Positions 441-36,340 of a stretch of 42,136 nucleotides of DNA are shown piece by piece. The DNA is from Eubacteriales bacterium. GTDB taxonomy: Bacteria > Bacillota > Clostridia > Christensenellales > CAG-138. The notes under the pieces were generated by a model. It was given only the letters and a program-made list of their open reading frames with translations. It had not been told where the DNA came from and did no database searches. Position 1 is the first letter of the stretch. Every line of letters begins with the position of its first letter. Location of the stretch: assembly GCA_021372675.1 (NCBI GenBank), contig JAJFTZ010000015.1, positions 1 through 42,136 on the forward strand, given 5' to 3'. Position numbers and translations under genes: made by a program.

Positions 441-557
441 TTCCGGTGGTTAAGCGAAGGGGTCCCACCTGTTCCCATTCCGAACACAGTCGTTAAGCCC
501 TTCTACGCCCAAGATACTGTGCTGGCAACGGCATGGAAAAATAGGTAGCCGCCGGAT
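441..557 (+). rRNA. 5S ribosomal RNA
   Basis: A complete 5S rRNA of about 117 nt. Recognisable parts are the 5' strand CCGGTGGT pairing with GCCGCCGG at the 3' end, the universally conserved stretch CCCATTCCGAACAC, and GTTAAGCCC. It lies about 130 bases after the 23S gene, in the usual 23S-5S order. End points are estimated from the terminal helix. Confidence 0.96.
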
Positions 558-564
558 CCCATTT

Positions 565-598
565 GCAAAGAAAGTGACCATATGGTCACTTTCTTTGC
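565..598 (+). terminator. Perfect 34-bp palindrome after 5S rRNA, probable rRNA operon terminator
   Basis: The left arm starts GCAAAGAAAGTGACC and the right arm is its exact complement, so a 16-bp stem can form with almost no loop. The right arm is T-rich (TTTCTTTGCGTTT), but a clean U-tract is missing. Its position 7 bases after the 5S gene favours termination or processing of the rRNA transcript. It is also the first hairpin of the structured repeat described separately. Confidence 0.65.
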
Positions 599-785
599 GT
601 TTACAGGAAATACCTGCGAGGCCCGCAGGCCGAGTGCCTACGGCGTTTCCCGCCGTGGGCCTCCGTACCTCGCGGTCGGTATTTCCTGCAAGGAAAGCCT
701 TGCTACACAAGGCCTTCCGCCGCCGCCGCGCATGTCGCCGGCGGCGGATTAGAGCCTCCGGGGCTTCCGCCCCCGAACCCCCGAG
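565..785 (+). repeat. Structured intergenic repeat, copy 1
   Basis: This is a chain of hairpins. The 34-bp palindrome comes first. Next AGGAAATACC (605-614) pairs with GGTATTTCCT (678-687), then GCAAGG (688-693) with CCTTGC (698-703). A GCCGCCGCCG/CGGCGGCGG stem follows around the motif GCATGTCG, and the tail hairpin ends in GCCCCCGAACCC. Related copies lie at 2565-2700 and 34763-34975. An open frame on the plus strand crosses it into the downstream gene, but the repeat is better explained as non-coding because its conservation is in the pairing. Confidence 0.8.
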
Positions 786-2564: not shown

Positions 2565-2700
2565 GCGCTTTCGCAAAAATGGCTTCGCCACTTTTGCGAG
2601 GCTGCTGCGGCAGGTCTTCAGGCGGGTTCGCTCACCGCTTGCCCGCCTGCAAGGTGTTCTTTGTGACGCGCATGTCGCCACAAAGAACGGGTCTGTATGG
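2565..2700 (+). repeat. Structured intergenic repeat, copy 2 (diverged)
   Basis: Directly after the P60 gene come three consecutive hairpins. TCGCAAAA...TGG (2571-2582) pairs with CCA.TTTTGCGA (2588-2599). CAGGCGGG (2619-2626) pairs with CCCGCCTG (2642-2649), followed by CAAGG. GTTCTTTGTG (2656-2665) pairs with CACAAAGAAC (2679-2688) around a loop containing GCGCATGTCGC. The order of hairpins, the CAAGG after the second one and the CATGTCG loop match copies 1 and 3, while stem sequences differ. Confidence 0.65.
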
Positions 2701-2722
2701 CATACCCCATGGAAGCGCGGAA

Positions 2723-18702: not shown

Positions 18703-19003
18703 AAAGGGAACAAGGTTTGCGTATTTTTCACAAGACCGCCTCTGGCATAACGGGGAGGAATCGTATATAATCGTTATAATACCCCTTTTTAAAATCGTTT
18801 TCAATTTGGGCTTGCGCCCAAAGAAATAAGGCGCTGCGCCGCTACTCCACAAAATAGCGATCGCGGGCCAACAAAAAGGAGGCTCTCAACCCGCTTCGGC
18901 TTGCGGTGCGGCAGCGTGGAGACCTGCCGTAATGGATTGCATCCGATTTTTAGGATGGTCCGAGCGAACGGCGCGGAGGCGCGGTTCGTCAAAGCCGGCA
19001 CGC
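18703..19003 (+). other. Long leader before the sugar ABC ATPase gene
   Basis: About 300 bases hold no gene. Two TATAAT boxes occur (18766-18771, 18775-18780); a weak CTGGCA (18742-18747) lies 18 bases before the first. TTTGGGC pairs with GCCCAAA near 18807-18825, and GGCGCTGCGCC follows. No known riboswitch was recognised. Confidence 0.5.
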
Positions 19004-20125
<1,122 letters not shown>

Positions 20126-34726: not shown

Positions 34727-34755
34727 AAAAAAGGAGCGGTCACACCGCTCCTTTT
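34727..34755 (+). terminator. Terminator of hpt (first of two identical hairpins)
   Basis: AAGGAGCGGT and ACCGCTCCTT form a 10-bp stem around CAC, with A residues before and TTTTT after. The same hairpin returns at 34996-35022. Confidence 0.85.
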
Positions 34756-34762
34756 TGCTTGT

Positions 34763-34975
34763 CGGAAAAGTGCCGCGGCACTTTTCCGAGGGTCACAGGA
34801 ACAACCTGCGCCTTCGGCGCGGCCGGTTGTTCCTGCAAGGAAAGCCTTGCGCTGCAAGGCTTCCCGCCGCCACCGCACATGTCGGCCCTCGGCGGGACAC
34901 GCCTTAGGCACTAGGCCTGCGGGCCGTCGCCGGCGGCGGTTGGAAGCCTCCGGGGGCCGTGGCCCCCGAACCCTC
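34763..34975 (+). repeat. Structured intergenic repeat, copy 3
   Basis: A perfect 26-bp palindrome beginning CGGAAAAGTGCCG (34763-34788) is followed by four further hairpins. AGGAACAACC (34797-34806) pairs with GGTTGTTCCT (34825-34834), enclosing GCGCC/GGCGC. GCAAGG (34835-34840) pairs with CCTTGC (34845-34850). A large GCCGCC/GGCGGC stem encloses a loop starting ACATGTCGG. CGGGGGCC pairs with GGCCCCCG (34951-34968), then AACCC. The architecture equals copy 1 at 565-785. Confidence 0.85.
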
Positions 34976-34995
34976 AAGGCTTTTTTGACAGCCTG

Positions 34996-35022
34996 AAAGG
35001 AGCGGTCACACCGCTCCTTTTT
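34996..35022 (+). terminator. Second identical terminator hairpin
   Basis: AAAGGAGCGGT and ACCGCTCCTTT with CAC in the loop, then TT, duplicate the hpt terminator. It also lies 10 bases after the stop of the minus-strand zinc-ribbon gene, though the T-tract in that direction is short. Confidence 0.75.
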
Positions 35023-35590: not shown

Positions 35591-36340
35591 TTATACCTTT
35601 GCGCCGCATTCCCCGCAGAACTTCGTGCCGGGCGCGAGGGAGGCGCCGCAGCTTGGACAGGCCGCGGGCTTCGGCGCGAGCGAGGCGCCGCAGTTGTTGC
35701 AAAAGCGCACGGTGAGCGCGTTTTGCGCGCCGCATTGCTCGCATACCTTGAGCGCCATCGAGGCGCCGCAGTTGTTGCAGAACTTGCCCGTTCCCGCGGG
35801 CTTTTGGCACACGGGGCAGATGGTCGTTTTGCTTTCGATCTTGCCCTGCCAAACGGTGGCGGTTTCCGCGGCGGCGTCGATGTTGCGGCGCATGGCGTCC
35901 GAGCGCGCCTTGGCGACGAAAACCTCTTGGCGGGGCGCGCATTCTACGCAAAGCCCTTCGTCCTCGTTGAAGTCGGCGTCGCAAACCCATTTGCGGCAGG
36001 CGTGGCAGCGGTGAAAATGCTGCTGCGCCTCGTTTTGCGCGCGCTCGAACGCGGCTTCGTGCTCCTTGTGCCATTCGGGGCTTTGCCCCTCGAACCGCTC
36101 GGAAAGCACGTCGCCTCCGCGCTGCATGGAATAGCCTAAGCTGCCGAGCGCGCCGCCGAAAAGGCTTCCCACAACGCCCGCGCCGCGCGAAACGAGCCGA
36201 AGGCCCTTGCCCTTTTTATAGGTTTCCGATTCCACAAACGAGCTTTTGTAGCCGTCGCTGCAGCAATCGCAGTAGAAGGTGAACTCAAACCCCGCCTCGG
36301 TGGAGTTATCCTCGTAATTTCTCGTGAAAGCCTTAAGCAT
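35591..36340 (-). CDS. Multi-zinc-ribbon protein
   Basis: A 249-residue protein with five cysteine clusters. An N-terminal domain of about 150 residues carries YCDCCSDGY and then CHACRKWVCDADF...CVECAP, which looks like a treble-clef-type metal site. Three consecutive zinc ribbons close the protein: CPVC/CNNCG, CEQCG/CNNCG and CPSCG/CGECG. A glycine-rich, mildly hydrophobic stretch (VVGSLFGGALGSLG) near 56-70 may associate with membrane. GGAGGAAAG precedes the ATG. No known function; the ribbons suggest protein or nucleic-acid binding. Confidence 0.88.
   Translation of the reverse strand: MLKAFTRNYEDNSTEAGFEFTFYCDCCSDGYKSSFVESETYKKGKGLRLVSRGAGVVGSLFGGALGSLGYSMQRGGDVLSERFEGQSPEWHKEHEAAFERAQNEAQQHFHRCHACRKWVCDADFNEDEGLCVECAPRQEVFVAKARSDAMRRNIDAAAETATVWQGKIESKTTICPVCQKPAGTGKFCNNCGASMALKVCEQCGAQNALTVRFCNNCGASLAPKPAACPSCGASLAPGTKFCGECGAKV

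What the first reader, a model, noticed from the sequence alone, without database searches (positions are those of the whole stretch)
565..785. Family of multi-hairpin intergenic repeats conserved by pairing rather than sequence
Copies at 565-785, 2565-2700 and 34763-34975 share the order palindrome, hairpin ending before GCAAGG, CATGTCG-loop hairpin. Copies 1 and 3 also share a GC-rich tail ending GAACCC. Between copies 1 and 3 the second stem changes AGGAAATACC to AGGAACAACC while its partner changes GGTATTTCCT to GGTTGTTCCT, giving two compensatory double changes. In copy 2 nearly all stem bases differ yet pairing holds. Covariation implies selection on structure, as RNA or as cruciform DNA. 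All copies sit after gene ends.
Basis: partly seen in the sequence, partly recalled or inferred. Interest (0 to 1): 0.75.

Follow-up and report, generated by a model that had tools for sequence, protein, structure and literature searches.

The report
Hairpin-built jumping DNA copying terminator hairpins
The repeats are small gene-less mobile DNA elements made of five hairpins, apparently moved by an IS1182-family transposase, that land at transcription-terminator hairpins and leave a copy of the whole hairpin on each side, so the DNA shape rather than a sequence seems to set where they insert.

Summary
The window copies belong to a family of about 50 copies in this genome. It is also found in 56 of 103 genomes (19 of 26 genera) of the same bacterial family and in some other families of the order. 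Covariation is overwhelming: 35 of 41 pairs show double changes and no shuffle reaches the observed score. G·T and A·C mismatches are equally frequent (72 vs 84), whereas 5S rRNA of the clade gives 9 vs 0. This points to DNA-level or strand-symmetric structure, not an RNA. The copies are mobile: about 27 MITE copies are flanked by direct duplications of a locus-specific stem-loop, 13-37 bp long and as long as the hairpin, usually a terminator. Window copy 3 has a perfect 27-bp duplication at 34730-34756 and 34996-35022. One copy sits inside a hairpin of another copy; removing it restores an intact element. The genome carries an IS1182-family insertion sequence with the same terminal repeats and end hairpin, and the IS itself duplicates stem-loops. 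The studied relative IS1272 instead deletes its target stem-loop; whole-stem-loop duplication was drawn only as a hypothetical pathway. Verdict: an IS1182-type MITE family, a new variant of a known kind.

The parts
565..785 (+). Copy 1: H1 565-598, H2 604-688 with a nested palindromic module in its loop, H3 about 694-716, H4 about 718-747 with the CATGTCG loop, H5 about 758-775; begins 8 bp after the 5S rRNA (442-557)
   Evidence: E 8.5e-45 over 565-780
2566..2707 (+). Copy 2: divergent, shortened member; H1, H2 and a CATGTCG-loop hairpin kept, H3 and H5 largely lost
   Evidence: E 5.9e-8 over 2570-2707
34730..34756 (.). Left copy of the target-site duplication: terminator stem-loop AAAGGAGCGGTCACACCGCTCCTTTTT
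   Evidence: 27/27 identical to the right copy
34757..34995 (+). Copy 3, complete element from terminal repeat to terminal repeat (GCTTGTCGGAAAAG ... CTTTTTTGACAGCCTG); H1 34762-34789, H2 34796-34835, H3 about 34843-34862, H4 about 34864-34939 with a nested module, H5 about 34950-34969
   Evidence: (E 1.8e-47)
34996..35022 (.). Right copy of the target-site duplication (same 27 bp)

Best explanation
The repeats are a family of non-autonomous transposable elements (MITEs, about 190-240 bp) moved by an IS1182-family DDE transposase. Shown from sequence: (1) terminal inverted repeats, about CAGNCYRTCGACAAAG, shared with a complete IS1182-family IS in the same genome; (2) an H1 hairpin just inside the left end, also present in the IS; (3) insertion at the foot of stem-loops, mostly intrinsic terminators, with the entire stem-loop duplicated at both ends; (4) an internal multi-hairpin core kept by covariation across many genera. 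Inferred: the transposase recognises an extruded stem-loop or cruciform. The two 3' transposon ends attack the 5' feet of the hairpins on the two strands. These feet lie next to each other at the four-way junction, so gap repair copies the whole stem-loop. The duplication length therefore equals the hairpin length, and each insertion leaves a terminator on both sides, which makes it nearly harmless.
For: Duplications: 17 of 57 copies in three genomes, against cross-locus nulls; 9 of 30 copies in further genomes, all above 870 null pairs; one copy in another family of the order. Duplications lie at both element ends; 27 of 30 hold a stem of 6 or more pairs against 22.5% of random windows. Nested insertion L078: the duplication is the H3 hairpin of another copy, and the rejoined site aligns end to end with an intact copy. 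Partner: L177:1-1567 with tnp 71-1546, IS1182 family model NF033551 at 6.7e-118, ends CAGCTTGTCGAGAAA in inverted repeat. IS copies duplicate stem-loops: contig-end pairs C54/C67 and C72/C79, G073:C17, G107:C1. Near-identical copies in G013 show recent activity. DNA-level structure. Literature: IS1272 targets stem-loops (PMC5678879; PMC4923244).
Against: No IS1182 transposase was found in G013, where the youngest MITE copies lie; that assembly is only 84% complete. The MITE and the IS share ends and H1, not H2-H5, so the MITE is not a simple deletion of this IS. Most old copies lack a recognisable duplication. Some IS copies have different hairpins on the two sides. Cross-mobilisation and cruciform attack are inferred, not assayed.
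Confidence: 0.85

Rival explanations
1. A conserved structured RNA (sRNA, leader or terminator/attenuator) that is maintained because the host uses the transcript.
For: Strong covariation and several near-invariant segments such as CGCRCATGTCG; position downstream of genes.
Against: G·T no more frequent than A·C (72 vs 84), against 9 vs 0 in 5S rRNA; no Rfam match; stem-loop duplications, nesting and near-identical young copies show a mobile element.
Confidence: 0.07
2. The covariation is produced mainly by mutation (template switching inside DNA hairpins) and not by selection. This is compatible with the mobile-element reading and concerns only why the stems stay perfect.
For: Two duplicated target hairpins differ by loop inversion (L019, L020), one of them with a compensatory change, although both copies were identical at insertion; template switching is known to create and repair hairpins (PMC8794818); few G·T intermediates.
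Against: The same five-hairpin order and near-invariant loop segments are kept across many genera, which mutation alone would not keep.
Confidence: 0.35
3. REP/BIME-like elements moved as single-stranded DNA by a Y1 (RAYT or IS200/IS605) transposase.
For: Palindromic, intergenic, high-copy; hairpin-based recognition would fit covariation.
Against: The only Y1 hit in the genome is a 69-aa IS200-like fragment; IS200/IS605 elements make no target duplication (general knowledge), whereas 13-37 bp duplications are found here; the ends match an IS1182-family IS.
Confidence: 0.03
4. Long fixed-length duplication by an IS1202-group transposase (known duplications 16-28 bp).
For: Duplication length range overlaps (PMC10132070).
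Against: Here the length follows the hairpin (13-37 bp); the outer ends are CAG, not TGT/ACA; the IS with matching ends encodes an IS1182-family protein.
Confidence: 0.02

Closest known systems
IS1272 / TnSha1 (IS1182 family, Staphylococcus)
   Same: IS1182-family transposase; targets stem-loops, often terminators, without sequence consensus (PMC5678879, PMC4923244)
   Different: IS1272 removes the target stem-loop and leaves no duplication; here the stem-loop is duplicated whole, an outcome drawn in PMC5678879 only as pathway b of a model; here most copies are non-autonomous
MITEs in general
   Same: Short, gene-less, terminal inverted repeats shared with a resident IS, high copy number
   Different: Conserved, covarying five-hairpin interior kept across genera; hairpin-length duplication instead of a fixed short one
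BOX, RUP, ERIC, bcr1, REP/BIME repeats
   Same: Intergenic, hairpin-rich, mosaic interspersed repeats (general knowledge; for RUP/BOX only the title and abstract of PMC3049150 were seen)
   Different: Different sequences and ends; no Y1 transposase partner; stem-loop duplications
IS1202 group (ISNCY)
   Same: Unusually long target duplications (16-28 bp; PMC10132070)
   Different: Ends TGT/ACA and other transposase; no hairpin targeting reported

Membership tests
MITE of the IS1182 family | Terminal inverted repeats shared with an IS1182-family IS | tested here: met
   IS ends CAGCTTGTCGAGAAAG / CAGCTTGTCGAGAAAC; copy 3 right end CAGGCTGTCAAAAAAG; G013 CAGCTTATCGACAAAG / CAGACCATCGACAAAC
MITE of the IS1182 family | Transposase of the family in the genome | tested here: met
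   NF033551 394.6 bits against cutoff 270, E 6.7e-118, in the window's genome; not found in G013
MITE of the IS1182 family | No coding capacity, short, multi-copy, near-identical young copies | tested here: met
   About 200 bp; G013 copies 97-100% identical
MITE of the IS1182 family | Target duplications at insertion | tested here: met
MITE of the IS1182 family | Movement by the IS1182 transposase in trans | not testable with these tools
   Needs a transposition assay
IS1272-type stem-loop replacing transposition | Target is a stem-loop of any sequence | tested here: met
   27 of 30 duplications hold a stem of 6 or more pairs, control 22.5%
IS1272-type stem-loop replacing transposition | Target stem-loop deleted, no duplication | tested here: not met
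   Whole stem-loop present on both sides
REP/BIME (RAYT-mobilised) | Full-length Y1 REP-associated transposase in the genome | tested here: not met
   Only a 69-aa open frame with a 32-position Y1 match, IS200-like
Known structured RNA family | Match to an Rfam model at gathering score | tested here: not met
   Only 23S, 5S and malK-I in the window
Structured RNA in general | Excess of G·U over A·C at paired positions on the transcribed strand | tested here: not met
   72 vs 84; 5S control 9 vs 0

The most novel reading that the evidence does not exclude
A DDE transposase that reads DNA shape alone: it joins transposon ends to the two adjacent 5' feet of an extruded cruciform, so that the target duplication is the hairpin whatever its length. 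A long-lived MITE family, itself built of hairpins, may survive in the Christensenellales by inserting without breaking terminators and by offering its own hairpins as further targets.
Probability: 0.55. Interest if true: 0.72.

Novelty: new variant of a known kind. Interest (0 to 1): 0.55.

Why it matters
It gives many natural examples of an outcome so far only drawn as a hypothesis for IS1182-family elements: duplication of the complete target stem-loop. That makes structure-guided transposition directly testable with defined substrates. It also explains a high-copy hairpin repeat found widely in a bacterial order known here mostly from metagenome assemblies. Finally it gives a caution for RNA discovery: strong covariation in intergenic repeats can be DNA-level, and the G·U versus A·C count separates the two cases.

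Tried and rejected
Rfam for the repeats: no match. Y1/RAYT transposase: only an IS200 fragment. First genome contigs pattern scan: nothing; the second gave names for the related MAGs. Search for longer relatives by left-end pattern: most extra hits were chance, but one (L150) was the broken left end of the IS. IS1202 as mover rejected on ends and transposase family. Gene orientation from stop-to-stop frames was not usable in GC-rich DNA. Window 35978-36097 hit of the model lies in a zinc-ribbon coding region and is taken as false. IS copies with different hairpins on both sides (G117:C443, G073:C18, G012:C9) are left unexplained.

Full report
The observation. Copy 1 finds 51 blastn matches in its own genome. 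A covariance model from 37 copies finds 63 matches there, including weak antisense shadows, so about 50 places, and finds the three window copies with E 8.5e-45, 5.9e-8 and 1.8e-47. The element architecture occurs in 56 of 103 genomes and 19 of 26 genera of the same family at E <= 0.001 (the weakest of these may be false). In a sample of 200 genomes of the order it occurs in 18 at E <= 1e-6, 13 of which lie outside the family.

Anatomy. From left to right: terminal repeat (A)GCTTGTC or AGCTTATC; H1, whose left arm starts inside the terminal repeat; ACAGGAA-type H2; GCAAAGAAA and H3; H4 with the loop CGCRCATGTCG; H5 (CCGGGGGC..GGCCCCCG); and a right end CTTTTTTGACAGCCTG. H2 and H4 loops often carry further palindromic modules of about 45-50 bp. 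Copy 2 is a shortened, divergent member.

Covariation. On 37 copies 28 of 41 pairs show double changes. On 103 copies 35 of 41 do; 95.0% of cells pair against 75.3% in shuffles and 35-49% with slid partners; none of 500 shuffles reaches the score. The second alignment was fitted to the structure and so leans towards it; the first was not. To ask which molecule is constrained I counted wobble types. An RNA keeps G·U but not A·C, while DNA hairpins on both strands suffer equally from either. The repeats have 72 G·T and 84 A·C (19 vs 24 on the unfitted alignment). 5S rRNAs of the same clade have 9 and 0 outside wobble-dominant pairs. This speaks against a plus-strand RNA and for DNA-level or strand-symmetric maintenance. 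Template switching could supply part of it (PMC8794818): in two loci (L019, L020) the two copies of a target hairpin, identical at insertion, now differ by an inverted loop, and in L019 also by a compensatory pair.

Mobility and the hairpin duplication. In 57 copies with both flanks, left and right flanks were compared and calibrated against 3192 cross-locus pairs. Fifteen copies exceed every null pair and two more reach p 0.002. The matching stretches lie at both element ends, are 13-37 bp long and differ in sequence at every locus. In window copy 3 the 27 bp AAAGGAGCGGTCACACCGCTCCTTTTT are identical at 34730-34756 and 34996-35022. The result repeats in 9 of 30 copies from further genomes and once in another family of the order (L279). 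Of 30 duplications, 27 contain a stem of at least 6 pairs and 24 of at least 8, usually within two bases of both edges; random windows of the same lengths give 22.5% and 4.4%. In L078 the duplicated 20 bp are the H3 hairpin of another member of the family. Taking out the insert and one copy of the 20 bp restores an element that aligns end to end with the intact copy L034. This nested case gives the empty site without needing another genome.

The partner. A left-end search led to a contig end with the same end sequence followed by a transposase start. The complete IS lies at G000:C79 (L177:1-1567). Its ends are CAGCTTGTCGAGAAAG and, inverted, CAGCTTGTCGAGAAAC; its 491-aa protein matches the IS1182 family model NF033551 at 6.7e-118. 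H1-like hairpins lie just inside its left end and at its right end. The IS copies break the assembly, but their outer flanks can be paired: C54 and C67 carry the same hairpin, and so do C72 and C79. Relatives in G073 (C17) and G107 (C1) are flanked by duplicated 24-bp and 20-bp palindromes. So the IS and the MITE share ends, target and duplication type.

Mechanism. Shown: ends, target, duplication, recent activity. Inferred: the IS1182-family transposase moves the MITE in trans and recognises an extruded stem-loop. If transposon 3' ends attack the 5' feet of both hairpins of a cruciform, the duplication is the whole hairpin. This is pathway b of the model in PMC5678879. The IS1272 element studied there, and TnSha1 (PMC4923244), instead lose the target stem-loop, wholly or in part, and make no duplication. 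A duplication that keeps a terminator on each side would make insertion nearly neutral and may explain the high copy number; this is inference.

What stays open. The origin and use of H2-H5, which the IS lacks; why the transposase is rare where the MITE is common (16 of 103 genomes, many of these weak hits); and IS copies with unlike hairpins on the two sides. The conserved core may serve transposition, protect against transcription, or offer landing sites; the data do not decide.

Comparison and verdict. By what was tested it is an IS1182-family MITE, but it fails the defining outcome of the only well-studied relative, IS1272. I did not find a paper reporting stem-loop-length duplications for this family in the held library. 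A general review mentioned in these papers says that some IS1182 members target palindromes, and from memory ISfinder lists variable repeat lengths for the family; the review was not available here. Hence 'new variant of a known kind'.

Noticed in passing
window 18827-19009: malK-I RNA motif, 111.9 bits, on the plus strand.
   Followed up: no
G000:C54 end, C67 start, C72 end, C79 start (L213, L211, L210, L214): Contig ends lie inside the IS1182-family IS and can be paired by their flanking hairpins, predicting the joins C54-IS-C67 and C72-IS-C79.
   Followed up: partly
window 620-665 and 34885-34926; also L035, L037, L038, L041, L042: A separate palindromic module of about 47 bp (GCGACGGCCCGCAGGCCTAGTGCC..CCGTCGC) nests in H2 or H4 loops and also occurs alone next to other hairpins, so it may be a second small repeat family.
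   Followed up: no
L123, L124, L125, L128, L135 (G013): In G013 a different module, GAAGGTGAATTGCCGC..GGGGTG, is inserted at one fixed point of the H4 loop (CACA|TGTC).
   Followed up: no
A2 columns 78/198, top of H2: A T·G pair is kept in about 96% of copies, the only pair where a wobble dominates; it may be a protein contact rather than a pair.
   Followed up: no
L019 (G000:C43) and L020 (G000:C10): The two copies of the duplicated terminator hairpin differ by loop inversion, a likely footprint of template switching.
   Followed up: partly
L140 (G013:C48:14414-14445): A solo H1 hairpin with terminal-repeat sequence on both sides next to a terminator, perhaps the smallest mobile form or a remnant.
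   Followed up: no
window 442-565: Copy 1 starts 8 bp after the 5S rRNA, so its H1 stands where the rRNA operon terminator would be expected.
   Followed up: no
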